From positions 2,190,001-2,254,000 of the forward strand of contig AP031357.1 in the NCBI GenBank assembly GCA_037833965.1: a DNA stretch of 64,000 bases, read 5' to 3'. Position 1 is the first letter of the stretch. Each line of letters opens with the position of its first letter. This document shows, piece after piece, positions 4,962 to 62,441 of this stretch. This DNA comes from Marchantia polymorpha subsp. ruderalis (Eukaryota; Streptophyta; Marchantiopsida; Marchantiales; Marchantiaceae). The position numbers and the translations under genes are program-made. The notes below the pieces were generated by a model. The model was not told where the DNA came from, searched no databases, and saw nothing but the letters and a program-made list of their open reading frames with translations.

Positions 4962-7900
4962 ATGGCAGCATCGCACCGGACGGCTGATATGGCGCTACCG
5001 CAGGCGGAGATCAATTGGGACAGGTGAGAAGTTCGTGTCCTTGCTCTGCTTGTTCTTTGAAGGTGATTCGGTAATTTTTTTGTGTTAATGTGACAGTTCT
5101 GCTGCCAAAACCCTGTGGTTTTGAAAATGTAGACCTAATGAAAGACTGATGGGACGTCCTATCTTGACATTTATGATTTGCATGTCAGTGTGATTTTTTT
5201 CGAAATTTGTTAGATGGTATTCTACAGAACCAGATCCACAGTATTATGTCATGCATGCCGCTGGAATTTTGGCTTGACATGCCCAATCTGCAATCAATCA
5301 GATTCTAAACCATTTGTGTTGTATGAGAGTTCAGTCCAAAGTGTCTGAGATCAACATCTGTTAGATGTTCATATGGGGTAAATCCACCCACACAAGAGTC
5401 TCCCCGGTTGTCGAAAATTTTCAGGTCTTATCTGTAAACGAGATCCATCTTTGTTTTTCCTTACAAGAATACTGCACTGCTGAGCATAACTCTGTTTTTT
5501 TAGAGAAATTGGATCTTCCACACCTTTTTCAATTTTGAAGATACTCTATCCTTATGTCTTTGACATAGTAATGTATCTCCAATTCAAGATTCTTACTTCC
5601 GCTTTCTCGTTTTGCGAAAAATGAGATGATCGTTTTAGCCGAACCAAAGTCTTCAATCTTTGAGATTTTGGTTGATGTATTTAAGCATACTAGTTAGTTG
5701 TGGGAGTCCGTATTTTATGCAGTATCTGTCCAACTAGCTCAATTCATACTCGAGGATTTTGGAATTCATCTATTTTCATGGAAATTGCCTCACAGAACTG
5801 TTGGTGATGATCATTTTAATTTTGTAGGGAATTGTCTTAGATTATTACTGACAAGATCATGTAAACAGTGACCTGTATATGGAGTTTGCATGAGTTTGAA
5901 AGACTAATCGCTTTTACTTTGATGGATGAGGACTGCCTGTCGTTCTTGCTGGTCACATCTCCTTCTATAGACATAAAGTAGAAACATTTATGTTGAGTTC
6001 TTTCTCTGGTACATGCTCTGTTTTCTTTTCCGATCTATGTTGATTCTAAGTTCATGTCCTTTCTGATATTTTTCCAGCAGGGTTTACAGTCAACCTGTCT
6101 TTGCAATTACTACGATCTGACATATAGAAGTCTGATTGTTTTTGAGAGCTCTTATACTTATTCTGAGTGCTGTGGAATAGATGATTCGAAAGTTGGGACA
6201 ATTAACACTAGAATGTAACTAAGATATTCAAATTTAGACTACGTCCGCATGGTTCTACCAAAAGGTCGAGTGAAGAGTGTTGGATTCTTCTGATCACCTT
6301 CTCTCAACGAGAATTAGTCTGACAGGTTGGTGACTTTCTAAGATAGGATATTAAGCTTTTGGTGTGAAATCTTAACTTACTTAAAAGCTACAAACTTCCA
6401 TTTGCAGCTTCCGTGAGTCGTTTCATGCAGAGAATCCTACATCAAATTGTCCACTAAGGAAGATTTGATTTTAAGGTTTGTTGAATAATAACAGACAGCT
6501 CATACACCGACTCCTTTTTGTCGGATTTTTGGTTTGCAGACTAGACAAGACAAAATTTTACCTCGTCGGAGCAGGTCTATTTTCTGGGATATCAGGAGCA
6601 CTGTATCCTATATCTGTAATAAAGACAAGGCTGCAAGTTGTGCGGGCAGATTCTGTTCACAAAACAGCCGGATCAATTGTTAGACACATAGTTTCAACAG
6701 AAGGTATTAGAGGTTTGTACAGAGGATTTGGAATAGTGATCACTGGGGCTATCCCCAGCAGAATGGTTTTTATGACCAGTTTGGAAACTACCAAGGCTGC
6801 GACATTGAAGATTGCAGAGAGGATGGAACTACCTGAAGCCACAGCTGCGGCCGTGGCTAATGGTGCAGCGGGTCTCTTATCTTCAATGGCGTCCCAAACA
6901 GTCTTCGTCCCTCTGGATGTGGTGAGACTTTCTATGCCCTGGACATGATTTATCACTTCAGGTTCATCAAGAAGATGTAGTGGGCAATTGATTGAGAAGT
7001 GTTTGTTCTTAATCTAAATACATCCTTCAATGTGTTTCTATTTTTCGGAGCAACTCAACTGAATTTTTACTTCATTTAATATGTGATCAGATTGACGTGA
7101 AGTGGCTGTATTAGATAGTCAGATTGGTTTTGTTTTGTTTTGATTCTTTCCCTCTCTTAAGAGCTGGTTGGCGAGTGTCATTCCCAATCTGCTTTCCTCA
7201 TTTTAATATATTGGAATAAATTCCTGATTTGTGAACGTCTACAGGTCAACTCTGATTTAAAATGACAAAAACTGCCCCTCGTTATTAAGAATATACCTTT
7301 CGTGCAGGTTAGTCAAAGATTAATGGTTCAAGGTACCGTTGGAACAACACACTACAATGGCAGTATGGATGCTGTGCGTCAAATTATAAAAGCCGATGGT
7401 ATTCGAGGTCTCTACAGAGGGTTTGGAATGTCTGTCCTCACATATTCCCCTTCAAGCGCCGTTTGGTGGGCTGCTTACGGTTCCAGTCAACGATTGATAT
7501 GGAGGTAACTTTCAGAACTTTTGTTTATATACAGTTGATTATGATTAGTTTTATACCAGATTGAGGTTCCATTGTTTTGTTCTGTATCCGTCGATTAGCA
7601 CCACTCAGCCAGTCGCAAGGTCTATGCTATTCATGCGACAGACACATACTATGAGTACAGTGTATGCATCTAACGGTCTATATTAATCGAGCTGCGACGT
7701 GGGAATGCCATGTTAAATCCATCTTACTTTGAATGAATCACTTTTTTTATGTCTAAGATGGAGCGTTAATAATATATGTTGGGAGTCCACGTTGAGTTAC
7801 ATTTACTGGTGTATGAACATCAGTAGATATTACTAAAAATCTGGATGAGACTGCTTGATTGAAAACCTTTAAATGAATTTGAGTTAGTTAATCATCCAGT

Positions 7901-45100: not shown

Positions 45101-48100
45101 TTGAAATATACCAAGTTGATCGAGTTGTTTCTTGTTTAGTCTGACATTGAGTCATCTCAAACTTCGGCTGTAAAGCTTGGCTGTTCTGACCAATTGCGAT
45201 GAACAGGGAGAGAAAAACGTTTGTGAGTTTTGTCCTCCCAAAGGAGAAGACATCTGCACAATCATGTACACCAGTGGTACAACCGGAGAACCAAAAGGGG
45301 TGCTTATTAAACATGAGAGTATCGTAGATCTCAATACTGCTACGGAACATTTCCTTAATAAACTGGGCGAGAAGGTACGAATATTGGTTCGAAGAGCTTG
45401 GTGACCCACAGTTATTTCAACAAAAACAGCCTGGTCATAAAAATATATCGTGGAGACTTTGAATCTTCATAGTGAGTTAATGATAACTCTTGAATGGTGC
45501 AGCTTGATGAAAATGACATCTTCTTCTCATTCCTTCCCTTGGCACATATCATGGACCGGTGTCTGGAAGAGTACTTCGTGTATATTGGTGCTTCGATTGG
45601 ATTCTGGAGAGGGGTAAGACCGACATGTAACTTTGTATTTTTTACGAGTTAAGTCTTGTATCATGTCTTTTACGGTTGCATGGAAGTGCCTTCCTCGTAT
45701 TTCAAACTTTGACATATTTTGGTTATTGCAGGATGTGAAATTGCTTACCGAGGATATTGCCGCCTTGAAGCCTACATTTTTTGCCGGGGTTCCTCGAGTT
45801 TTCGATCGCATCTACACAGGTGACAGTACAGATTCGGTTGTGATTCTCTTCGGTGTGATATGTTGGTTATCAGATGGGTTGAGATGCAAGCGGCTGTTAG
45901 TTGCAGGCACTTACAAATAAGTGACTCAATCGTTGGTAGTCTTTCGAACTAGGCGAGTCGGTTGCGTCATAAGTGGCTTTGTTGGTCCTTAGGAGATAGC
46001 TCTCGTGTTTTCAAGAGAGAGGGATGCGTTCTGGTATGTTTTTGTCAAGCTCGCTTCCTCTTTTGAGTGTGTCTGACGATCATACATTTCGAATCACAGG
46101 ATTGAACGCCAAGATCGTTGCTGCTGGTGGAATTAAGAAGCTACTGTTTGACTTTGGCTACAAGATGTGAGTGACTTCGATTGTTGAAACCGTTTCTCGT
46201 GAAGAACGATTTACATCTAAAACATACTTCTTCGCCTTCTAGCTCCATCTTCTCAAATTATATGAATATTCTGAAGTTCTGCAATTAAAAAAACATTTTT
46301 CAAAACTTTTATAGATTTTGGCCTAGATTCATCGCCAGTTGTTTGACTTTACCAAGTGAATCGTCGTTTGCGCAGGAAATTGAAGAATATCAAGAATGGC
46401 AAACCGCAAGAAAAGGCAGCCCCACTCTTTGACCTCCTCGTCTTCAACAAGGTTCGCCTATATGCGAGAACCTGTCAACTTTAGATTCGTGGGGTTCTTG
46501 AAAATGATGTGTCGCACACAATCAGGACGTTCAAATTACCTCTTCTTTTTCGGTTTCTCGGCTGAATTTCTGAAAAGACCTCCAAGTCTGGTGGTAGTCG
46601 TCAGTGGAATCCTCGAGATCAAGTAATAGTGCTTTATAATTTAAGCATATCTTTTCAAGGATGTAATTTTCCGTGGTGATTTACTCCAGGTCAAAGTTGG
46701 TCTTGGAGGTGGCGTACGGCTTATATTGTCTGGAGCTGCGCCTCTGGCGAGCCATGTTGAGGAGTTTTTGAGGACCACAATGTGTGCTCCATGTATTCAA
46801 GGATATGGTATGACAACTCGGCAGAAAATGAAAAATCGGCAGATCTCTAAGAACATTTTTCTCTCCCAAGACAGAACTCGTTGCATAACTTGTTTTACTG
46901 AACGCTTTTGACATTGCTAAGTACTGAAAGATGGATGTTGTTTTTAAGCTTCAGTGTGGAGGTCCAATTCTGGTATTATTACTAACTCATCCCTCTTGTG
47001 TGGCTCGACGATCTTCTATCTTGCAGGCCTGACAGAAACTTGTGCTGGAAGTTTCATATCTCTACCGAATATTATATCTATGCAAGGAACTGTAGGACCC
47101 CCCATGCCTAACATCGAGGCACGCCTTGAATCAGTTCCAGAAATGAATTATGAAGCTTTGCCAAAGGATCCGAACACTCCTGCAAGAGGCGAAGTTTGCA
47201 TCCGTGGTAAAACTGTTTTCGCCGGATATCATAAACGTCCTGATCTCACTGAGGAGGCACTCACTTCTGATGGTTGGTTCCACACTGGTGAGTATTTGGG
47301 ATACCTTAGGGTAAAGGTGTCCAATGATGTAATAGAAAGCTCAAAATTACAGCATTACTTTTGTAATAGACTTTTAGCCGATAATTTTAATATTCGACAG
47401 CTTTGGTGCTGTTGGTTTTCAGGTGATATTGGTGAATGGCAGAAAGACGGAGCCTTGAAGATCATTGACCGCAAGAAGAATATATTCAAGCTCTCTCAAG
47501 GAGAGTATGTTGCCGTAGAGAATCTCGAGAATGTGTACGGCCTTTGCCATCCAGTCGAATCGGTAAGATATGGTTATTGCGCATCTAGCCCATGTGTATC
47601 CAGTTGGTTATTGCTCTATCTGTACTAATCCAATTGGCGAGCCAGTCAATTTGAATCACCTACTTTTTTCGCAAACACACCAGGTTTCTTAAAGTTATTG
47701 AACTGATAATTGCACTCGATCTTTTTAGCTGATCTTCGAGCAATCTCATGCCTACATCTATGCCTTGGTTTTGACCTGTGCCAGATTTGGGTGTACGGTA
47801 ATAGTTTTGAGTCTTCTCTAGTAGCTGTGGTAGTGCCCAAGCGTGATGTTCTTGAACATTGGGCCGCCGCGAATGGGATCCAAGGCTCGTTCGAAGAGAT
47901 CTGCAATAACTCCGAAGCGAAGCAGTTTATCTTGAAAGAACTAGGAACCACTGCAAAAAGTAGCAAGGTAAGTGATCATTTCGCGGAGCAAGTGGTTCGT
48001 TTTTGCTACATGCACGTTTCTTGGGGTGCATGTGAGTCTACGAACCAAGTAAGCCAAGAACTTTATAAAAGGGTTGTAATTTTGAGTTGTCTAGTTAAAC

Positions 48101-48463
48101 AGTTTTATCTCTTCATTTCTGACCTTGAAGTCCTCCTTACACATGATTCGAAACGCAGTTGAAAGGCTTCGAAGTCATCAGGGGTGTACATCTGGAACCC
48201 GAACCATTCGACGTCGAGAGAGACTTGTTGACTCCCACGTACAAGAAGAAGCGACCTCAACTATTGAAGCACTACGAGGTAAGAAGTCTGTCCGTACTAA
48301 AATTTGTCGAAATTTGCATTGTTTCAATGAAGAGTCAAATGGCCAGTGCAGAGTAGCCAATTGACTGTTTCAGGTACACGGAGCATTTTCCTTGACAAGC
48401 GTTTGTTACGTTGATGTTGTGCAGGCTGTCATCGCCGAGTTGTACAAGGGATGTAGACAATAA
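42112..48463 (+). CDS. LACS: long-chain acyl-CoA synthetase (LACS4/5-like)
   Basis: Activates long-chain fatty acids to acyl-CoA using ATP; plant relatives of this type act at the ER or cytosol. Nineteen exons join in phase to 2001 nt, 666 residues: 42112-42266, 43006-43072, 43254-43343, 43519-43575, 43760-43808, 44038-44114, 44510-44549, 44852-44946, 45207-45374, 45503-45613, 45732-45819, 46100-46166, 46376-46451, 46690-46807, 47027-47287, 47423-47562, 47785-47967, 48159-48278, 48425-48463. Visible motifs: AMP-binding [11 protein letters not shown] (231-241), GYGLTET from about 418, DGWFHTGD (501-508) and [14 protein letters not shown] (522-535), the plant LACS linker region. The length equals that of Arabidopsis LACS4 as I recall it. 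No peroxisomal C-terminal signal (ends KGCRQ) and no obvious N-terminal transit peptide. All introns are GT-AG; no frame breaks seen. Confidence 0.96.
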
Positions 48464-51961: not shown

Positions 51962-52534
51962 TCATAATGGCAACTCTGGAATATCAACCGCTTGAGGCGA
52001 ATCGGTCTCAGGGGCTGTGCCGTCCGATGTAGCGATTACGGCGTCGTCTAAACTTCCATCTACTCCTATCCTACGCAACACGTTTACAATCTCTACTTCT
52101 ACATTATGGCGCGTCTCATTCAATCCCTCTGTAAATGTATTAACTAACTCTACAATATGTTTGTGTCCTGCGGATCCGCTGGCCTTTGCGCTCATCATTT
52201 GTCGCTCAAGCGAATCAAGCTTCAACCACTTCACCGTTTGCAATCCCCACATCGCGATTCCGTTCAGACACTTCTCCATACGCAACTTCAACTCGTTGGT
52301 TGACTCTTCCCGTAGCTGACGGTAGGCCTTCTCTGCCTTCTCCATTCTCCTTTGCGACTCTCGTAATCTCATCTCTGCCTTTCCTAACTGCTCTCGTAAC
52401 CGTCGATAGTCAGATTCAACCTTTAATCTACATTTGACCTCCGAAGACCTGGCCGATTCGCAATCCACCAATTTCTTGACCCAATCCGCTAACTCTTCTT
52501 CGTGCTTCTGGTTTCCCGCCGTGTCATGGCTCAA
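51962..52534 (-). pseudogene. C-terminal part of a coiled-coil repeat-family protein
   Basis: A 190-aa frame on the minus strand, open from a non-ATG codon after an upstream stop, so it is 5'-truncated. Residues about 10-90 form a charged heptad-like coiled coil rich in Arg, Glu and Leu (SDYRRLREQLGKAEMRLRES). This is followed by MWGLQTVKWLKLDSLERQMM and an acidic tail ending PQAVDIPELPL. I believe this type recurs many times in bryophyte genomes as an uncharacterised repeat protein, but no domain function is known to me. It lies collinear, same strand, with the frame at 62442-62995, which is likely the N-terminal half of the same kind of protein. Confidence 0.55.
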
Positions 52535-54284
52535 AACGTTGGATCAATTTGAGTTGAGACACGTTGAGTTTGAATTGAAGTCGGGGAACGTTAGGAGTCG
52601 GCTAACGTTGGGCCGTGGCAGACGGTCGAGGAGCGTTGGATGGAATCGACACCTTCCAGGCATATATTAGAGGCGAATTTGAAGTACTGTCAGGTCTTCG
52701 AGTTGAGCCTTTCGCGTCGGGGTTTTTTCCCTTAGCTTCGACTCTGATTCTACCTGCGAATAGTGAGTTTGGCTCGACTCTTTGTACAGTTTGTGTTTCG
52801 ACACTTATTTTACTTGAAGAACTGGATTACCAAGTTGGTATTGTGTTTGTGTTCAGTTTCTTTTTCTTTTGTTTTTTTTCAGTTCTTGTGTTTTTTTTTT
52901 CAGTTCTTGTTAGTTGGCGCAAATTCTCGTCGCTGGTCGAGGTACAAGACGGCAAAGAGGCAAACGAAGGCTCGATCGGCCTTTTGTTTTTCATCGCAGC
53001 GCTGGATGGCAGCAGGAAGATGACGTCGAGGTGATGGTAATTTTTAGCTGAGGCAGGCAGGAATGTAGAAGTGCAGAAGCTCAAGAGATGTGGAGTTCTG
53101 CCTGTTTGAACTTCGCAAGACGTCCAACCGATGAAGTTGTTGCGTCCGGGTGTATATACAGTCATTCAAGTCTTTGTCGATCGGTGAATATATCAATCTC
53201 TACAGCAAAATTTGTGTGAAACGACACGTAACTACACATTTTCTGTGGAGAAACGTCGTTGTAGGGCTAGAAATTGTGTGCGAGCAAGTGAGTTCGTGTG
53301 TGAGTATGTGTGAGCTGCTGCTGTTCTAGTCCAAGTCAAGCGCTGGTTTGAAATTTCAGGTTTTGTTTTTGGATCTTTTGACCGGATCCCGTTGCTTGGG
53401 AAGGTTCTGCTCTACGGAGTGTTAGAAAAGCCTGGCACGGAGAAATCGGAAGTCACAACTCAGGTTCTGCCTTCAATTATCCTCCTGAGAGCAACCAACT
53501 AACGAGATGGGTGGAGTTCATTGTTAGGCGGCGGATGCAGCGTCGCTCAGGATGAAAGACGTCCTTTGAAATAGGAAAGTAGTGATGGATTTGGTGTACG
53601 TAAATCGCGTCGAGATTTGCGTGTAGGACTGTAGATCAAATCCGATTTCCGACCTTGGTTTTTTGAGATTGTGAACACTGCCACTTTGCAAAGAATGGCG
53701 AGATTACCGAAAGCGGATTTCTTGGATTCTTGGTGAGACGCGCGTCAGCATTTGATGGACTTTTACTTCCCGGCTGTGATGTTACCTCCATTTCTAGGCG
53801 ATTCTAGGGAATCGCATTGTTTGCATCGGGACTGAGACACTGCCGATCACAAGTTGAAGCTCGCCGCATGGGAACAAACTTTTGTGGACCTTGGTCGGAT
53901 TTGGGTTGTTTTCTGTGGAGGTTGGATCAATCGGCGTATCAAACGTAGTTGTGGTTGTTGACTTGTTATCTATATGTTTGGATTCTGGGAGATGTGAGGC
54001 CGCTTTGCCGTGATGATCTCTAGAAGAACGATTCAAAAACTGTAGACATTGCTCTTCGTTGTCAGCTTGCGTCGCACAAAGTACATGTAATGCGCAACGT
54101 AAATGGCGTCAGATTTTGCGGAACCGACCCGGAAAGACTTCGCTTGATTTCAATATTGGTAAAACCCAGTGCTATAAACAAGACCAAATAGAATGTGATA
54201 CATAACGCACACAGGACACGGATGATCATTTCTTTGATTGAGCAAGAAGCCAGACAGGGCATGTAGATCGCGATCCAGAGGAAA
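52535..54284. other. unassigned sequence inside the nested insertion
   Basis: A plus frame at 52615-53034 contains a long Phe/Val/Leu stretch caused by T-rich DNA and is not credible. GTGTATATACAG ... GAATATATCAATCTC near 53150-53200 looks like the transcript start/end region of a plant LTR, so part may be a decayed LTR. Nothing firmer can be said. Confidence 0.35.
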
Positions 54285-54885
54285 GGGAAGCGTACTCTGG
54301 ATCCAAGTAGCCAATGGTACCCTTGATGGCGGTAGAGACTCCGCTCATTTCCTTGGGTAGATACTCGAGACCTGCGCAAGATTATTACAATCAAAAACCA
54401 GACCGAGTTATTTGAAGGGACGTGCGTGTTGTTTGGTTGTGAAGTCTGTGCATCTTTGCTTGAAGAAGGAGTCAGAGATCCCAGCCGCTAATTACTCCTC
54501 GCAGAACCGATCACAATGTCGAGTCGTGTCTTCCAGCTGAGGGGTGTTCTCGCCGTAGGCTGATCTGTTGATGCAGTTTTCAATGTCAAGGGCTGAGTTC
54601 CTGAGTAGAAAACACACATCACACCAGCATTTATAAGCAAGCATCGAGACGGGGTATTTCCAGAATTGTTCTTAACATAGAGATCAAGATTTAACCAGAG
54701 ATAATCCGAAAAGGGCTCCGGCAGGAATGATGAAAAGCACTATCACCTGCGTGATGAAGATGGTCGTTTAAAGTGCCCTGCGACATGTAATCGTAGACGA
54801 GGATCTCCTGGCGTGATTCGAGACAATAACCAACAAGAGGTAAAATCCCCATCAGAGCCTTGTGGTGAACAAGCCTGCGAGATAC
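54285..54885 (-). pseudogene. receptor-like kinase fragment lacking its catalytic loop
   Basis: Minus-strand exons with GT-AG introns: about 54885-54747, 54600-54496, and 54371 to about 54285. Exon 1 gives RLVHHKALM ... LVGYCLESRQEILVYDYMSQ and GTLNDHL, kinase subdomains IV-V. Exon 2 gives PLSWKTRLDIVIGSAR, subdomain VIa. Exon 3 gives LEYLPKEMSGVSTAIKGT then IGYLDPEY, the activation segment. The HRD catalytic loop and DFG motif that should lie between LEYL and MSGVST are missing, an internal deletion. Similarity ends after DPEY, so the rest of the C-lobe is absent. The style is that of plant receptor-like kinases (malectin/LRR type), but the subfamily is not certain. The N-lobe glycine loop is found next to it on the opposite strand. 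Confidence 0.8.
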
Positions 54886-54960
54886 GAGTTTGGAGTTGTG
54901 TACCAGGGTACACTAAAAAGGAATGACATTCATGTAAAACTATTAAAACCGTCTTATGGT
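54880..54960 (+). pseudogene. inverted kinase N-lobe fragment
   Basis: On the plus strand, EFGVVYQGTLKRNDIHVKLL matches the kinase glycine-rich loop and the start of the VAVK strand, with IHVK in place of the usual IAVK. It abuts the minus-strand kinase exons head to head at about 54885. The simplest explanation is one receptor-kinase gene broken by an inversion between subdomains II and IV. The following sequence is AT-rich and non-coding. Confidence 0.6.
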
Positions 54961-55787
54961 TTAATAGTTAAATTGTTGTCAATTTTGGAAAACAACACAT
55001 TCAGCGATTTTGTGTTACAAGGTATCTTTATTACATTCATCAAGTGCTCTTGTGTTAGAGGGTATCTTTATTAATTTATTAAGTACATCAAGCGTGTAAC
55101 TTTTTAAATTGAAAAGAAAAAAAGAAAAAAAAAGTAGTCTGAAGGGGCTGAGAACTTGCACTCGGTTTCAACTATTTGGTTTGTAGATTGGGAAGACATT
55201 GTACTCCTATATATATATATGACGTGGTCAACATTATATATTAGGGCTTTTAGTGTCTAGTGTATGTGTTTGTTTAGATGGTGGAAGAATATATCTTCTC
55301 CGTATACCTTTCTTCTAGGGAACGAGTAGAGTAGGTAGACTTTTTAGATTCCTTGCACTAGTAGAAGGGGAGGTGTGAGGTTCAGTATAAGACAGTTTGG
55401 CGGAGATATCTTCTTGGCAACGCGATGCAGGAGATAGCGCTCGTGACCGAAGGTGGAAGGGAATGATGGAGCTCGACTCGAGATCGCAATGCGAGGCGAC
55501 TTTCTGTGTGTTGTGTTGTTCTGTGCTGTGTTTCATTTCGGCTGGAGAGTCGTTGCTAGCTGTTTGCTTGTGTTTGGATCCTCTCCAGTCTGGCTTCTTG
55601 ATGCGCGCCCATGTCTGGATTGACGTCGATTTCCGAAGTAGTTTTACTCCAGTGTGCTGTCGATAGTGCGGCTGGATTTGATCACCGGCGTCTATCTTTG
55701 TTTCTCTCATGGTGGTTTTGGAGTGATGACCAATAGCCATGAGAGTCTTCCTGCGGTGATGACAGGTTAGGTTGCCCATACCCATAG
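54961..55787 (+). other. AT-rich spacer and possible gypsy leader
   Basis: Contains a short imperfect direct repeat (GTATCTTTATTA near 55021 and 55061), a (TA)n run at about 55208-55221, and from about 55240 a normal-composition leader upstream of the gypsy gag frame. I could not identify an LTR end or primer-binding site. The minus-strand frame 55315-55785 is regarded as a shadow. Confidence 0.4.
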
Positions 55788-55835
55788 TCAGTAGGACTAA
55801 AGAAGGTTAGTGCAGGGACGAGGGCAGGTGGAGTT

Positions 55836-57473
55836 GTGGCAGTGGTGCCGGTTGGTGAGTTAGTCATCACGGAGGAGTTTGGTGATTCCGTTGAGGACCG
55901 TGGAGGATTTACGTGGAGTGGATTGAGGTATCGGCTACCTCATCCTAACACAGCAGTGGTTGCAGAGGCGCAGGGTGTGGCAGATAGCGGATCTTTAGTG
56001 GTGACATTGTCTAGTGTCTCACACTTCTTGACTGGGGACATGGACGGTATTTACGGGGCCATGAAGGGCCCATGGCGGTACTCTGGTGCAGTGGGCACCA
56101 TTGAGTTGGATGATTTCATCCAGGAGTTTAACACGTGGTGCGATATGCAATTCTTGCGTAACCCCACGTTGTTTACACCCTTCTTTGCATGGAAGGGGTT
56201 GTTTCAACATCTGGGGAGGCCTCCCATGGATGACTACCATGAGTTTGGAAGAGAGTATGTTGTGGAGATTGACGCATGGAGGCATCATTGGTCTTCAAAC
56301 TATTTGTCGATCACCCAGGGTGGTGTTGGTATCAGTGGAGGTGCGAGTGGTAGCATCACCGATGGTACTAGTGGAGCAGGTACCACCAGCGGTGCTGTTA
56401 GCGTTGCCAGCACGAGTGAGAAGAATACTGGCGTACCTTTGTTCAGCCCCATTCCTGAGTTTTTCAAGAGGTTGAGGAAGAACTATAAAGGAATGAGGAC
56501 GGAGAAGTTGAGGAGTCTCCAGGAGTTTTAGCAGAAGACTTGTGAGAGTCTTTGGGAGGCATACACTCGTATGCGGCGGTTGATCACAGTTACTCACGGT
56601 GTAACTGAGGCGCATGCGGTCCAGTATTGGTACAGGATACTGCACAGAGAGCTACGGCGGAGGGTTCGGGATGCTACACTCTTGAGCGATGCGTCACCGA
56701 CATTGGCTTATGTGTTTGCTCTTTCTGAGAAGATTGAGCTTAACATAGTGGAGGAGAGAGTGGTGACTTCTTCATTCGCTCGAGACGCATCCACTACTTC
56801 TTCTGTCCCACAGAGCACGGCACAGTCTAGACCCTTTGGTGTTGGTAGTGGTGGGGATTGCGGAGCGCAGACACGACACTAGATGGCCGCTAGAGATACA
56901 GGAGCATGTGCACCGGTGCCGTCGTTTGCTGGCCAGCAGCAGGGACCAACATGTTGGACATGTGAAGGGGATCATTTGCGGAGAGATTGTCCCAAGGAGG
57001 CCAGAGGTTGGAGTTCACAGGCCAGACCTCAGTCAGCACAGGTGGTGTGTGACCACTGTGGTCGAGCAGGTCATACTCGAGATCGGTGTTTTGACCTTCA
57101 TCCAGAGTTGACATCTGGTGGTAGAGGTCGTGGTGGTGATGCTTCCCGATTCCGAGGTGGCCGTGCTGGTAGAGGTAGTCGAGGTGCCGGTATAGTTGAA
57201 CGTCCTGTAGCGAGTGCTACTTCGGCCACAAAGAGCACGATGGCTGCCCGGATTGAGCAGTTGGAGCAGAGGCTCGCTGCTATGGCGAGTTCTGGAGCGA
57301 GCACTTCCACCTCTTACGAGGAAGAGGATTTCCTTTATTTAACGAGTGCAGCACAGGTGGAGGCATCGGTTGCAGTGACTAGAGGTGCAGCTCGAGCTCC
57401 AGAGCCACGCGGGGCAACAGGGGAGTTGGACCCTCATAGGGGTGAGGGTGGACGTCAGGCCAGACTTCTCTAG
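55836..57473 (+). pseudogene. gypsy gag with two CCHC zinc knuckles
   Basis: The capsid-like part includes FFAWKGLFQHLGRPPMDDYH (about 56180-56240). A typical retrotransposon gag segment, SLWEAYTRMRRLI ... VQYWYRILHRELRRRV, lies at about 56550-56670. Two nucleic-acid-binding knuckles follow at about 56952-57100: CWTCEGDHLRRDC and CDHCGRAGHTRDRC, both CX2CX4HX4C and intact. A Gly/Arg-rich RGRGG stretch comes next. Stops at 56529, 56880 and 57471 interrupt the frame. The first open codon after the upstream stop at 55785 is 55788; the true start is unclear. Confidence 0.85.
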
Positions 57474-58685
57474 TCATTTTTTTTGTCAGAGGTGGGCAGG
57501 ACTTCATCCATGAGACCTGTACCACCTAGTGACCTTAGTGGGAGGACTGAGACATCTACCTCACGGGTTGTGGACACGGACACACCATCTAGTGGAGTGA
57601 CGCGGATGGCTAGCTTAGTGATGAGATCTCCACTATTTTCAGCTACGGAGCCGATAGATTCTGGGATTGACTTGGCTCGGGTGTTTCGTTTAGCAGCCAC
57701 ATTGTGTGAACCTGGGAGTGTCACTGCTACGAGTGCCGAGATCGGCGAGGCTATTGTTGAGGAGCTATCCTCTACGACTACATTGAGCGATGAGTCGACA
57801 TGGCAGGCGGCAGCGGCGCGGATGGAGTTCTTACCAGCCCGACCAGCCATTGATCGTGAGAGGGTTGTCCCTAGTGTGTGTATGGTGGACAACCGGAGTG
57901 GTGTATTTCGCTTGGTGAGTGCTACAGGGCAGGTGTATGTCCCAGCCAGAGTGTTGCTGGATTATGGTGCACAGCCCTTGATGTTAGGCAAGACAGCCTG
58001 CATTAGTTTGGGAGTTCGGAGTTCCGAGTTGGAGCCTTGTCCGTTCCAGATTCAGACATCACTCGGTGGCACCAACGATAGGTCTTACATGATGACCAAA
58101 GAGCGCATATCAGTGCAGTTGAGGCATGATCATGCTTAGGATAGCTTGAAGTTTGGAGTTCGTGCGGTGGTTACACCAGCAAAGTCATATGATGTGCTTG
58201 TTAGTGGAGCTGTGTTATATCCGATGGGATTTCGGATGGACTATTAGACAGAGACTGCTGCTTATCGCCCTGGCTGGCAATCCGGTGATGGACGTATGAG
58301 TGAGCTGCCGGTGAGATTTATTTCTCGAGATCAACCTCTAGGATCTTCTCTTGCGGTTTTAGCCTCCGTTACGGGTTTCAATGGAGTGCTTACATGGCCT
58401 GATGACTTGTTGGAGGGGAACAGGTCAGCCGACGATGCTCTAGTTCATGAGGAGGTGGAGGAGATTGTGAGCCTCGCGGCGGCAGTGTCTTCATCTTTGG
58501 ATGTCCCATTTTGGGATTCTTGCCACACATTACAGCAGGAGGCTGATAGGTTGGTGAAGAAGGCTTGGAGTGAGGCCTCTTTACCAGTAGAGGCAGAGCG
58601 AGTCTCAGGTGGTCGGCTAGTATGTGGTCCTAGCACCCTATCACCATTAGTTACTGTACCTATCGTATGGGAGTATTCCTCATAG
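57474..58685 (+). pseudogene. gypsy retropepsin-like protease region
   Basis: The protease core is seen as VYVPARVLLDYGAQPLMLGK (about 57936-57995), where the catalytic Asp is followed by Tyr-Gly instead of Ser/Thr-Gly. The downstream LGVRSSELEPCPFQIQTSLG and a later VVTPAKSYDVLVSG segment fit the beta strands of a retropepsin. About 450 bases of Ser/Thr-rich sequence precede the core. Stops at 58137, 58245 and 58683 interrupt it. The Tyr may be a decay mutation (GAT TAT GGT at 57960-57968) or family variation. Confidence 0.7.
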
Positions 58686-59640
58686 GGTGTTTGTTTGCTA
58701 GATCTTTTTGGAGGGATCAGCACGGGTTTGGCTGCAGTGTTGCAGTCAAGTATTCTTGTACGTAGATACTTGTACGTGGAGAAGGACGAGACTGCACGTC
58801 GAGTTTCTTCACGACATGTTACACAGTTGATGCAACATTTTCCTTTGTTGTTGCCGCGATCAGCTGTTCGAGAATACCAGAAGGCGTTGCTTGGAGACAT
58901 TTCATTGTTGGGGGCGTCAGACCTTGATCAAGTTGGGCATATGGATGTGATGATTGCGGAATGGCCATATCAGGGGCACACACGCGCTGGACATGGAGCA
59001 GGGTTGCATGATCCGAGATCTCGGATGTTTTGGGAGATGCTACGAGTGTTACGTCATCTCAAGGAGCAGCAGACACGTTCTCCAGCATACATTCTAGAGA
59101 ACGTACCATTGTTGGGTGACACTCAGGCTTAGTTGATGGCGAATGGCCATGGTGTCAGGGCATGTATTGGATCAGCAGTGTTGTTGGATGCTGCGAGGGT
59201 TAGTTCACGTGCTCATCGTGCACGTTTATGGTGGATCAACCTTGTGCCACGAGAGATATTGCGTCATGCGTATGATTCTATGCATCGCGATCCTACACTC
59301 ACCGTTGACAGGATCTTGGATGTCTCTCGATACTCTCAGGTGGTGAGAGTTGTTGACAGGTCACCCATGGCGTTGCTGAACCGCGTAGGTCAGCCTCGAA
59401 TGGCTTTACCTACGTTAGTTAGTTATCCGGCATCACATGCATATCGTGATAGTGGACATGGACTACTGTGGGACAGTACCCTACATCAGCTGGTGGAGCC
59501 CAACGCCGATGAGAGAGAGCGTGCGATGGGATTTATGACTGGTGTGAGCGCGGCTTCTTTAGTTTCAGAGGTGTCGCGTCGTCAGGTTTTGGGTCAGGCT
59601 ATGAACTTGAACTGTTTGACATGGATTGTGAGCTTGGGCT
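58686..59640 (+). pseudogene. C5-cytosine DNA methyltransferase domain inside gypsy pol
   Basis: Motif I (SAM binding) LLDLFGGISTGLAA at about 58692-58733, with an acidic residue in the next strand (YLYVEKDE). Motif IV region AEWPYQGHTRAG at about 58956-58991: the codon at 58968-58970 is TAT (Tyr) where these enzymes have the catalytic Cys of a PCQ motif. Motif VI LENVPLLG at about 59094-59117. Motif VIII RAHRARLWWINL at about 59208-59243. A stretch of about 100 residues follows as a possible target-recognition region, then MGFMTG and motif X RRQVLGQAMNLNCLTW (about 59577-59624). Motif order is canonical, so this is not the rearranged DRM type; motif I most resembles DNMT3-like enzymes. About 318 codons, broken by TAG at 59130. 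It sits between protease and RT in the same frame as gag. Confidence 0.85.
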
Positions 59641-59801
59641 TGGCCGAGCAACGCCGTTTGCGCGTTGATTTGGTGGTTGTTACACCACTTGTTAGCTCAT
59701 TGCCCATCGGGATGGTAGTGGCAATGGCTGGGGGCGACAGGCGAGATATTCGTCATCCTTGGAGTTCATGGGACGTGACGAGAGGACTTGCTAGAGTGGC
59801 C

Positions 59802-59893
59802 CTCCTTGGTAGCAATCTCCACGTGACCAACATCTCCAACTGCATGGGCATGCAGTTGGAGATGTTGGTCACGTGGAGATTGCTACCAAGGAG
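59802..59893. repeat. 92-bp near-perfect palindrome
   Basis: Left arm 59802-59846 (45 nt) and right arm 59849-59893 are exact reverse complements with a 2-base GG centre. As a result both strands encode the same peptide LLGSNLHVTNISNCM here. Upstream coding (ending ...RGLARVA) uses the frame of the methyltransferase; coding downstream of the palindrome uses the frame of the reverse transcriptase. The left arm plus centre is 47 nt, exactly the offset between those frames modulo three. The right arm reads sensibly in the downstream frame (HAVGDVGHVEIATKES), so the left arm is the likely inverted duplicate, such as from template switching. Confidence 0.9.
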
Positions 59894-60955
59894 AGTACGG
59901 AGAGCCCTTCTTTGGAGGATGTGGCATAACAACCAGTGACAGTATCGCCTCCCTCTTGTGTGTCCATAGAGGAGGAGTGGGAGCCATCGATTGGTTCTCA
60001 AATCATTGGAGGAGAGAGGCAACAGTTGACACAATTCCTACGTGACTATAGGAGTTGTTTTGCTTTCAGTATGAAGGAGTTGGATACTTTGATTGGACCC
60101 GGCATACGGATAGAGTTGGCTAGTGATACACCAATCTTCCGTCGTCCCTATCGATATAGTGATATGGAAAGGGATTTGATTCGGAGTCGGACGTTGGAGT
60201 TATTGGAGGTTGGGTTAGTGGACTTGTCGCATGGTGAGTATGCTTCAGCCACTGTTATGCCGGCGAAGAAGTATGTACATGGCAACTACACGGATATGCA
60301 CATGTGTGAAGACTACCGTCCTATCAATCAGCAGACGAAGGTCGATAAGTATGTCATGCCTACACCTGAGGAGATCTTCGATGCAGTGGGACATGCAAGG
60401 ATGTTTAGTACTTTGGATCTTCGGGCATGATACCATCAATTGCCGATTCGGGAGGAGGACAAGGCCAAGATAGCGTTTTGGGGTGTCAACTCCCACGGCA
60501 AGGATTGTTTGTATCAGTGGCGATTCTTACCCTTTGGGTTGAAAAATGCACCTGCTGAGTTCCAGATAGTGATGGACAAGATTCTAGCGGGGCTGGATTT
60601 TGTCAAATGTTACATTGATGATATTTTGGTGTTTAGCGACACGATTGAGCAACACCAGATACATTTGCAGATTGTGCTTAAGCGGGTGAGGGCTCATGGT
60701 TTGCGGTTACATCCAAGGAAGTGTAGGTTCTTCCAGGAGAAGGTGGAGTATTTGGGTCATGTGATCTACCCATGTGGTTTGGAAGTTCAGCAGGCAAAGG
60801 TGGGGGCTATTGTGCTCATTCCCCGTCCAGCAGATGTGAGTAGAGTTCATGCATTCATGGGTTTGGCAAACTATTATCGGAGGTATGTGAAGGGATTCAG
60901 TGCTATAGCGAAACCTTTGAACCAGTTGCTGAAGTCAGATCAGGAGTGGCAATGA
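59894..60955 (+). pseudogene. gypsy reverse transcriptase
   Basis: A conserved N-terminal part (IRIELASDTPIFRRPYRYS, about 60108-60160) is followed by CEDYRPINQQTKVDKYVMP. FSTLDLRA then gives the first catalytic Asp. After a TGA at 60428-60430, where the family has a residue before YHQLP, come QWRFLPFGLKNAPAEFQ and the YIDD box at 60611-60622 with the second and third Asp. The thumb region includes KCRFFQEKVEYLGHVI and LANYYRRYVKGFSAIAKPLN, both typical of Ty3/gypsy. A TAA at 59927 and the terminal TGA at 60953 also interrupt it. Catalytic Asp residues are intact despite the stops. Confidence 0.92.
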
Positions 60956-61651
60956 GGAGATGAGCAGGAGAGAGCTTTTGTTGAGCTCAAGGCCAGGTTG
61001 GTGGCCGCTCCCATCTTGAGGAGACCTATTAGAGATCGTCCATACCAGCTGCACACTGATTGGAGTATGTTGGGACTTGGAGCGGTGTTGACGCAGTGTG
61101 ATGATGAGGCCAAGGAGTTTGTGATTGCATACGCTAGTCGTTCAAAAAATGCAGCAGAGTCGCGGTATAGTTCGTACAAGGGAGAGTGTTTGGTAGCGGT
61201 GTGGGCTGTGGCACACTTCAGGTGTTACTTGTTTGGTACGCAGTTTACCCTTGTTACCGATCATCAACCGCTCAAGTGGTTGATGGAGTTTGACAAGCTC
61301 ACAGAGAAGCTTGCACGGTGGGCTCTCATCTTACAGGAGTACGACTTTCAAGTGGTGCATGGGCATGGAGTTGCAATTTACAGTTTGAGTCGGAGCCCAT
61401 GCACTAGACAGGAGGATGACACTGGAGCTAAATGGCATGGTGAGGTTGATGAGGAGATGGTGTCCGGTTGGCATGCATCTGCCTTCATGTGTTGGTTACG
61501 TGGAGCCTCTAGCAGTGATGACCACTTGACATCTTACTCTAATCAGAGAGTAGATAGTCAGTCTTCGGATCCTGAGATTGAGGATGGTGGTGTGGATCAA
61601 CGTGATGTTCACGATGATGCGTTGGTGTTGGAGTTCCTACGACCAGTATGA
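60956..61651 (+). pseudogene. gypsy RNase H domain
   Basis: Continues the RT frame after the TGA at 60953: RAFVELKARLVAAPILRRP, then YQLHTDWSMLGLGAVL (first catalytic Asp), YKGECLVAVWA (Glu) and LVTDHQPLKWL (second Asp). The last conserved acidic residue, expected in an ADGLSR-type motif, is lost: the sequence reads AIYSLSRSP (about 61372-61398). An acidic linker (SDPEIEDGGVDQRDVHDDAL) follows. The frame ends at 61651 exactly where a different sequence beginning TGATGCC starts, before any integrase. So the element is truncated here by deletion or insertion. Confidence 0.88.
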
Positions 61652-62441
61652 TGCCAGGCACAGTGGGTGCTGCAACCTCCGGGCTGACTCTCACTCAGGT
61701 TTACCTCAGATGGCTTTTCGGTAGCTCATCATGATTCTAGAAGACTAGGATTCCGCATCATACTCATAACCTAAACACCCTCTCACACAATCTCTCAAGG
61801 TATCACTCCAACTCATATATTCATCGACACTCCAAGGTACTAAAAATTTGTCACTCTTTCATATATGAAACAAGTCTCTACATATGAACTCTCCAAACTT
61901 GCTTGAGAGGCTCTTCCCTACCTCTCTATATATATTACTTGAGGACTTACCATAGTAACAAATGGTAATTTCTATCTAACTTACTTTTACAAAGATAAAC
62001 CATAGTAAGGTTGACTAGTTATCAATATGTGGCAACATGCCATTGGCCCCCTAAACCTTCTAGATGTTTACTAATCCCTAGATTGAGGTGGCGACATGCC
62101 ATTTGTGCCTTTCCCACTTCTAGAACTTCCACTTTCCACTAAGTCAACATTAGACTTAGTCTCACCAATGGAATACTCCTTACTTTAGTCAAACCAATCA
62201 AAACTAAACATGAAGTTCAAAAGTCTTTTCTCTTGGAATCTAGACTTTTGTACAAGACAAAATAGAAGTGCTCACTCAAATCTTCTAGAACTTATCTAAT
62301 TATTCCGCCAAGTATAGACATTATAGCTAAACTAGCTAGACTTAGTCATAACTAGCTAGATTTAGTCATAACTATCATAACCATGATTAACTCCTTGGCT
62401 AATTCTAGTTTTAATTCACACATGCAATATCTGATCTTACA
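61649..62441. repeat. LTR-like block (TG...CA) or junction sequence
   Basis: A 793-bp non-coding AT-rich block begins TGATGCCAGG and ends GATCTTACA; gypsy coding stops at its left end and the repeat-family coding stops at its right end. Terminal TG/CA dinucleotides and the lack of frames fit a solo or truncated LTR. However, the flanking 5-mers (CAGTA and GTCCA) are not a target duplication and no second copy is in the window. Alternatively, on the minus strand the right end reads ACT followed by GTAAGA, a good splice donor, so it could be the start of an intron of the neighbouring gene. CTAGCTAGAxTTAGTCATAA is repeated near 62330-62370. Confidence 0.4.

What the first reader, a model, noticed from the sequence alone, without database searches (positions are those of the whole stretch)
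58686..59640. DNA methyltransferase domain built into a Ty3/gypsy polyprotein of a plant
Motifs I, IV, VI, VIII and X of a C5-cytosine methyltransferase lie in canonical order between protease and reverse transcriptase, in the same frame as gag and protease. Independent capture of DNMTs by retrotransposons has been reported in dinoflagellates and charophyte algae. A DNMT-bearing gypsy family in what appears to be a land plant would extend that. Such an element might methylate its own new copies or interfere with host silencing; that is inference.
Basis: partly seen in the sequence, partly recalled or inferred. Interest (0 to 1): 0.88.

Follow-up and report, generated by a model that had tools for sequence, protein, structure and literature searches.

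The report
Marchantia retrotransposon carrying a DNA methyltransferase
The window holds a broken copy of a jumping gene, found in some three hundred places in what is very probably the liverwort Marchantia genome, that carries its own DNA-methylating enzyme domain, which suggests that a plant's own DNA-marking chemistry has been taken over by one of its genomic parasites.

Summary
Window 58686-59640 encodes a DNMT3-like cytosine methyltransferase domain between protease and reverse transcriptase of a Ty3/gypsy element. This copy is dead: the catalytic Cys reads Tyr, a TAG interrupts the domain, and the element stops at 61670.

The assembly fits female Marchantia polymorpha. All 125 domain matches scored (of 628 candidates) are 88-100% identical; 297 ORF1/ORF2 junctions match. 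The 13 other copies read keep GWPCQ. Between-subfamily dN/dS is 0.13.

KnitGypsy-Dnmt3 of Klebsormidium is the precedent (PMC5890265). Methylation of its own cDNA is inference.

The parts
52522..52823 (+). left terminal repeat A1 (5'-TGTCATG..), ending in a primer-site-like CTTGAAGAACT
   Evidence: 86% over 304 bp to the A1 of copy c5a; boundaries
52824..55165 (+). variable cargo segment; contains an antisense receptor-kinase-like host fragment (unspliced in this copy, with 138 bp of the host locus missing)
   Evidence: matches C3:18736272-18737249 at 80-86%, plus another place with much of the same segment at C3:31329286, 95%
55170..55835 (+). 5' leader shared with subfamily copy c5a
   Evidence: alignment to c5a starts at window 55170
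55836..57473 (+). gag region with two CCHC-type knuckles, broken by stops
   Evidence: weak Pfam zf-CCHC, below cut-off; compared with the ORF1 of copy c8b
57483..58682 (+). protease region and linker; the aspartic-protease-like motif reads LLDYGA here (about 57951), LLDSGA in copies c8b and c5a
   Evidence: assigned by motif, since Pfam gives no protease hit above cut-off
58686..59640 (+). DNMT3-like cytosine methyltransferase domain; dead here (catalytic Cys position reads Tyr, in-frame TAG at 59130-59132)
59800..59890 (.). inverted duplication in this copy that coincides with the change of frame before RT
   Evidence: 59800-59849 or -59854 aligns inverted to c5a and c8b; sequence printed
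59927..59935 (+). ORF1/ORF2 junction: stop codon followed by CAACCA (TAA CAACCA here; TAG CARYYA in most junctions listed)
   Evidence: family context
59930..61670 (+). start of ORF2: reverse transcriptase and RNase H; the element is cut off at 61670, so integrase, PHD finger and right end are missing
   Evidence: no match to copies c5a or c8b in the 6 kb behind the window

Best explanation
SHOWN: The window holds a decayed copy of a Ty3/gypsy retrotransposon family, with 297 junction matches, in what is very probably female Marchantia polymorpha. The ten copies fetched have ORF1 = Gag (zinc knuckles) - protease - DNMT3-like methyltransferase, then one in-frame stop (TAG CARYYA), then ORF2, which in the copy annotated (c8b) reads RT - RNase H - DDE integrase - PHD finger. 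The DNMT domain is an old, selected part of the element, not a one-off insertion. INFERRED: the CARYYA context lets some ribosomes read through, so the DNMT is made at Gag level and Pol at a lower level. The DNMT therefore sits in the particle with the new cDNA and methylates it de novo before or at integration. The PHD finger behind the integrase steers integration or tethering to chromatin with a particular H3 tail state. First-strand synthesis is primed by the element's own RNA (11-nt complement between terminal repeat and primer site). Template switching by the element's RT patches host cDNA into the 5' segment.
For: Family and copies. Order gag-PR-DNMT-stop-RT in 10 of 10 copies (whole core aligned to c8b); RT-RH-IN-PHD by Pfam in c8b. 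Ty3 affinity: best PDB match is Ty3 Gag-Pol, E 2.5e-100. DNMT3 type: DNMT3A E 1.3e-10; a host DNMT3 query also rings in the element copies. Catalytic GWPCQ in 13 of 13 other copies read, all picked from top hits. Selection between subfamilies: dN/dS 0.132 DNMT, 0.114 PR, 0.190 gag, 0.050 RT, 0.094 IN, 0.196 PHD. Stop: TAG in 10 of 10 copies; of the 100 junctions listed out of 297, 94 TAG, 3 TAA, 3 sense; 91 of the 94 TAG have CARYYA; none of 125 scored copies has an open frame longer than 1,365 aa. Self-primer: 11-nt complement in 7 of 8 copies, kept in c5a, whose A repeat is only 62% identical to c8b's. Cargo: in c6a, c6c and c9a, 8 of 8 junctions sit where a CT..AC (antisense GT..AG) intron is missing.
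Against: No activity, expression, protein or methylation data were available. Readthrough was not measured; the search pattern itself fixed CAA..A behind the stop, and the 100 junctions listed are all zero-mismatch ones, so that context is partly selected for; the stop and the two YY letters were free. dN/dS was computed mostly on copies chosen for open frames, which biases it down. Among close copies the ratios are higher: DNMT 0.248 in nine copies; RT 0.368 and integrase 0.755 in six, on few changes. Three of 11 cargo junctions examined do not show intron loss (c8a unclear, c8b and window no). c6b keeps only 7 nt, and the window 5 nt, of the self-primer complement. The single-sequence AlphaFold model was useless (pLDDT 34), so the fold was not confirmed. 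Methylating one's own cDNA could be disadvantageous to an element, and no test here separates self-methylation from other roles. KnitGypsy-Dnmt3 showed no activity in yeast, which its authors call inconclusive (PMC5890265). No phylogeny was built.
Confidence: 0.62

Rival explanations
1. The methyltransferase is a chance insertion or retrocopy of a host DNMT3 gene into one or a few copies.
For: The host has DNMT3-like genes (C6:12459414 and C2:6440177-6444001). The family does pick up host cDNA in its 5' segment.
Against: 10 of 10 other copies fetched in full have the domain at the same place and frame. 125 of 125 scored matches are 88-100% identical. The domain is only about 28% identical to the host DNMT3, and dN/dS between subfamilies is 0.13.
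Confidence: 0.01
2. The domain no longer methylates DNA; it persists as a structural part of Gag or as an RNA- or DNA-binding domain.
For: The domain is strongly diverged from DNMT3A and host DNMT3 (about 28%). KnitGypsy-Dnmt3 had no detectable activity in yeast, inconclusively (PMC5890265).
Against: The catalytic and cofactor motifs (DLFGGIS, GWPCQ, ENV, AHRAR) are kept in the ten copies read in full, with dN/dS 0.13 between subfamilies.
Confidence: 0.25
3. The enzyme acts in the nucleus on host DNA or chromatin (titrating or misdirecting host silencing) rather than on particle cDNA.
For: The element also encodes a chromatin-reader-like PHD finger. Two SymbioDIRS-Dnmt3 domains methylated yeast DNA at CG (PMC5890265; expressed there with a nuclear localisation signal).
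Against: The DNMT is placed in the Gag-level product, the part expected in the particle (inference). Nothing measured here speaks for or against nuclear entry.
Confidence: 0.25

Closest known systems
KnitGypsy-Dnmt3 (Klebsormidium nitens; de Mendoza et al. 2018, PMC5890265; parts 1 and 3 of the text and passages read)
   Same: Gypsy polyprotein with a non-rearranged, intron-less Dnmt3-like domain under purifying selection; repeats arranged as in DIRS although the domains are Gypsy (Fig. 4 legend).
   Different: Described there as within the Pol polyprotein ORF; here the domain ends the Gag-protease ORF before a TAG CARYYA stop. No PHD finger (0 occurrences of 'PHD' in the main text), and no host-cDNA cargo in the parts read.
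SymbioDIRS-Dnmt3 and SymbioLINE-Dnmt (Symbiodinium; PMC5890265)
   Same: Retroelement-borne DNMT, in DIRS with A-coding-B-A-B repeats.
   Different: Tyrosine-recombinase or LINE elements; this one has a DDE integrase and a Ty3 RT.
Ty3/gypsy (Metaviridae) elements at large
   Same: PR-RT-RNase H-integrase order, Ty3-like RT, short target-site duplications.
   Different: No ordinary pair of flanking LTRs: split repeats in 5 of 8 copies with both ends seen and no second A in 3 of 8; extra DNMT and PHD domains; in-frame stop after the DNMT.
Tf1-type self-priming elements (recalled, not from a call)
   Same: 11-nt complement between the terminal repeat and the sequence right behind it.
   Different: Priming was not shown; the rest of the element differs.
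Bs1-like gene-transducing LTR elements of plants (named in PMC7264820, passages read)
   Same: Pieces of several host loci carried inside the element.
   Different: PMC7264820 says transduced genes are usually in the sense of gag-pol; here the spliced pieces resolved are antisense and sit between the left repeat and the leader.

Membership tests
Ty3/gypsy retrotransposon | Ty3-type reverse transcriptase and RNase H | tested here: met
   Ty3 Gag-Pol best PDB match, E 2.5e-100; RVT_1 and RT_RNaseH
Ty3/gypsy retrotransposon | DDE integrase downstream of RT-RNase H | tested here: met
   H2C2 zinc finger at 618-672 and rve at 691-784 of c8b ORF2
Ty3/gypsy retrotransposon | short target-site duplication and TG..CA termini | tested here: met
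   exact 4-bp duplication in 8 of 8 copies with both ends seen
Ty3/gypsy retrotransposon | two ordinary flanking long terminal repeats | tested here: not met
   A1 - body - B1 - GC - A2 - B2 in 5 of 8 copies; no A2/B2 in 3 of 8
DIRS retrotransposon | split direct repeats A-body-B-A-B | tested here: met
   5 of 8 copies
DIRS retrotransposon | tyrosine recombinase instead of DDE integrase; no target-site duplication | tested here: not met
   no such Pfam hit in c8b, rve present; 4-bp duplications
DNMT3 family | C5-methyltransferase motifs I, IV, VI, VIII, X in unrearranged order with DNMT3-like motif VIII | tested here: met
   motif numbers recalled; unlike the host DRM-like gene, whose order is rearranged (my reading)
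DNMT3 family | placement inside the DNMT3 clade of a tree | not tested
DNMT3 family | de novo DNA methylation activity | not testable with these tools
   needs an assay
KnitGypsy-Dnmt3 | Dnmt3 domain in a Gypsy polyprotein with DIRS-like repeats | tested here: met
   (paper)
KnitGypsy-Dnmt3 | common ancestry of element and domain | not testable with these tools
   no K. nitens sequence at hand; protein database switched off
Readthrough-type gag-pol (TMV-like CARYYA context; motif recalled) | in-frame stop with CARYYA before pol | tested here: met
   91 of the 100 junctions listed, of 297, are TAG CARYYA
Readthrough-type gag-pol | measured readthrough | not testable with these tools
   needs a reporter or ribosome profiling

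The most novel reading that the evidence does not exclude
An old lineage of DNMT3-carrying Ty3/gypsy elements, shared by streptophyte algae and liverworts and possibly predating land plants, packages a methyltransferase at Gag level by a CARYYA readthrough stop. It reads chromatin with a PHD finger behind its integrase, primes its own cDNA, integrates from a circle-like B-GC-A junction, and routinely stitches spliced antisense host mRNAs into its 5' end. It would be both a self-methylating element and a gene shuffler.
Probability: 0.3. Interest if true: 0.92.

Novelty: new variant of a known kind. Interest (0 to 1): 0.78.

Why it matters
Why an element would carry the very enzyme class that silences it was left open in 2018 (PMC5890265). 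If the host is Marchantia polymorpha, as the assembly statistics indicate, it is a genetic model, so the question becomes testable with methylomes, mutants and transgenics. The placement before a readthrough-type stop predicts where the enzyme is (in the particle, with Gag). The same repeat arrangement in Klebsormidium and here hints at one old lineage rather than repeated capture. The antisense, spliced host cDNA found in three copies would make the family a source of gene shuffling and perhaps of antisense RNA against host genes.

Tried and rejected
Protein database search for relatives of the domain: switched off, not made. Paper searches timed out four times and ran later. Close relatives in viral contigs and prokaryote genomes: none. 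The element DNA in the plasmid collection: no match. AlphaFold without an alignment: pLDDT 34, discarded. The 277-bp gap in the c8b cargo looked like an intron but, read by eye, has no GT-AG or CT-AC edges, so I do not count it. The 138-bp gap in the window's cargo has GT..AG edges on the wrong strand, lies inside the kinase coding region, and the cargo seems to keep the host intron; rejected as splicing evidence. c8a's cargo junction is unclear (29 unaligned bases). c7a's cargo comes from several loci, but introns were not checked. First reading of A1/A2 as ordinary LTRs: rejected, because target duplications lie outside B2 (or B1), not outside A2. Considered and rejected: chance similarity; a host gene inserted in one copy. 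I looked for a description of a DNMT-bearing gypsy in Marchantia in paper searches (listings) and in the passages or sections read and found none; subscription papers and supplements were not searched, so this is weak evidence of absence.

Rows dropped: ORF2 dN/dS used 6 copies with an unbroken ORF2 plus c5a, whose stops were skipped; c6a, c6b and c4a were left out. ORF1 dN/dS used all 10 copies fetched. TSDs: 8 of the 10 copies; c2a (nested copies) and c4a (left end split off by about 18 kb) left out. Junction letters: the first 100 listed of 297. Cargo was searched in 7 copies: c6a, c6c, c8b, c9a, c8a, c7a and the window; c6b, c4a, c5a and c2a were not searched on their own.

Full report
OBSERVATION. 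The stretch 58686-59640 translates to 318 codons with one stop, TAG at 59130-59132. Its first half passes Pfam's cut-off for C5 DNA methylases; the second half has no such hit. In the PDB the first half finds HaeIII methylase and DNMT3A, the second DNMT3A, all weakly. Against intact copies both halves align over the whole domain (84-85% identity). In this copy the catalytic PC motif reads PY, so it is dead as an enzyme. Gag and protease pieces lie upstream in the same frame; they are assigned by zinc knuckles and a DSGA-type motif, since Pfam gives no gag or protease hit above cut-off. RT and RNase H follow in another frame; a ~50-bp inverted duplication at about 59800-59890 coincides with the change. 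The element begins at 52522 with a terminal repeat and is cut off at 61670, before integrase; copies c5a and c8b match nothing in the 6 kb behind the window.

HOST. The window is C8:2190001-2254000 of an assembly of 241,466,482 bp in 9 contigs; contig C1 has 5,591,195 bp. The published female Marchantia polymorpha assembly MpTak2_v7.1 has 9 sequences, 241,484,302 bp and a 5.6-Mb chrU (PMC13078153, sections 5 and 6 read).

FAMILY. A search with the domain of one copy scored 125 of 628 first-look candidates; all 125 match at 88-100% identity, on all nine contigs, and by my count 27 have an uninterrupted frame of 1,324-1,365 aa. A pattern over the ORF1/ORF2 junction, with the stop codon left free and two mismatches allowed, finds 297 places against 0 for the reversed control; a junction match need not be a full copy. 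Ten further copies were taken with 20 kb each. In 10 of 10 the order is gag, protease, DNMT, one TAG in the same frame, RT (core aligned to c8b). In c8b, the one copy scanned, ORF2 shows RT, RNase H, integrase zinc finger, rve domain and a C-terminal PHD finger (PF00628, E 3.6e-10). Its RT matches Ty3 Gag-Pol at E 2.5e-100. The PHD finger's best PDB matches include CHD4, KMT2D and PHF21A.

THE DOMAIN. The intact domain finds DNMT3A at E 1.3e-10, ahead of bacterial enzymes, DNMT2 and DRM2. The host's own DNMT3-like gene (C6:12459414) detects the element copies too, but the element domain is only about 28% identical to it and to DNMT3A over some 185 residues, while the host gene and DNMT3A share 38%. 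So the domain is not a recent copy of the present host gene. Thirteen of thirteen other copies read keep GWPCQ (ten, three more), all picked from top hits. Between subfamilies (c5a against nine), dN/dS is 0.132 for DNMT, 0.114 for protease, 0.190 for gag and 0.515 for the tail behind the DNMT; for ORF2 (c5a against six), 0.050 RT, 0.041 RNase H, 0.094 integrase and 0.196 PHD. Among close copies DNMT is 0.248 (nine copies), RT 0.368 and integrase 0.755 (six copies, few changes). Copies were chosen for open frames, which lowers these numbers. The single-sequence structure model failed.

READTHROUGH-TYPE STOP. The stop is TAG followed by CAACCA or CAACTA in 10 of 10 copies. Of the 100 junctions listed out of 297, all zero-mismatch ones, 94 are TAG, 3 TAA and 3 sense; 91 of the 94 TAG have CARYYA. 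The pattern fixed CAA and the last A, so only the stop and the two Y letters were free. None of 125 scored copies has a frame running on past the stop (maximum 1,365 aa). Stop suppression with CARYYA is the tobamovirus type (recalled). It would put the methyltransferase at Gag level and Pol at a lower level.

ENDS. Copies begin TGTCATG and end CACGACA, with an exact 4-bp target duplication in 8 of 8 copies with both ends seen (lengths 10.7-12.3 kb). Five of the eight read A1-body-B1-GC-A2-B2; three (c6a, c9a, c5a) read A1-body-B1 with no second A. This is the A-coding-B-A-B arrangement that PMC5890265 gives for SymbioDIRS and says holds for KnitGypsy-Dnmt3 (legend of Fig. 4), but with a DDE integrase. 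A1 and A2 of one copy differ by 0-6 substitutions over 268-294 bp (five copies; c8a's comparison was cut at 268 bp). Right behind A1 stands CTCGAAGAACT, and A itself holds its 11-nt complement in 7 of 8 copies (7 nt in c6b, 5 nt in the window), including c5a, whose A is only 62% identical to c8b's. I read this as a self-primer; that is inference. How B1-GC-A2-B2 is renewed is unexplained.

CARGO. Between A1 and the leader lie about 2-3 kb that differ between most of the ten copies. I searched the genome with this segment of seven copies. They hold pieces of unlinked loci. In c6a, c6c and c9a, blocks that lie apart in the genome are contiguous in the element, and at all 8 junctions the missing stretch has CT..AC edges in element orientation, that is, an antisense GT-AG intron (3, 4 and 1 introns). 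So these are spliced host cDNAs in antisense. Of three more junctions examined, c8a is unclear, and c8b and the window do not show it; c7a was not checked for introns. Near-identical cargo at distant loci (c6c and C8:8622122, 100% as rounded over 3.7 kb) shows that it travels with the element. PMC7264820 (passages) says that genes transduced by retrotransposons are usually in the sense of gag and pol.

MECHANISM. Shown: structure, copy number, selection, conserved stop, target duplications, spliced cargo in three copies. Inferred: readthrough, packaging, self-priming, template switching, methylation of the cDNA, and PHD-guided integration. I rate methylation of new cDNA in the particle as the likeliest role (about one in two), with action on nuclear DNA or a non-catalytic role as rivals.

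KNOWN OR NEW. A Dnmt3 in a Gypsy polyprotein is known from Klebsormidium (PMC5890265). [quoted passage not shown] In my searches and the passages read I found no account of such an element in Marchantia, of the CARYYA stop, of the PHD finger or of the cargo. A 2018 Marchantia methylome paper counts five host DNA methyltransferases and has no occurrence of 'DNMT3' in its main text (PMC5784723, passages). I file it as a new variant of a known kind.

Noticed in passing
L009:4073-5211, L023:4196-4848, L015:4926-5435: Spliced antisense host cDNA inside three element copies; parent loci C6:26133212-26134865, C8:424259-426298 and C5:10380342-10380936.
   Followed up: yes
L009+L010, L015+L016, L027+L028: Three element copies with 4-bp target duplications but no second A repeat (c6a, c9a, c5a), as if integrated from a circle opened at the B-GC-A junction.
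   Followed up: partly
G000 contig C1 (5.59 Mb, probably the U chromosome): 17 of the first 100 listed junctions lie on this small contig, about 3 per Mb, against 297 in 241 Mb overall; the list is ordered by contig and capped, so other contigs cannot be compared from it in full.
   Followed up: no
C6:12459414-12460271 and C2:6440177-6444001: Two DNMT3-like host genes; PMC5784723 (passages) lists only MET, CMT and DRM classes for Marchantia.
   Followed up: no
L019:5852-6454: Copy c8b lacks the leader shared by the other close copies; the segment in its place matches more than 15 places at 68-85%, so elements of this group seem to recombine.
   Followed up: no
L025:3-2315: Another gypsy-like reading frame of 771 aa (gag-protease and the start of RT, my reading) lies antisense within the ~18 kb that splits copy c4a.
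   Followed up: no
window 46948-48162 and 6475-6948: Exons that look like a long-chain acyl-CoA synthetase and a mitochondrial carrier (my reading, names recalled).
   Followed up: no
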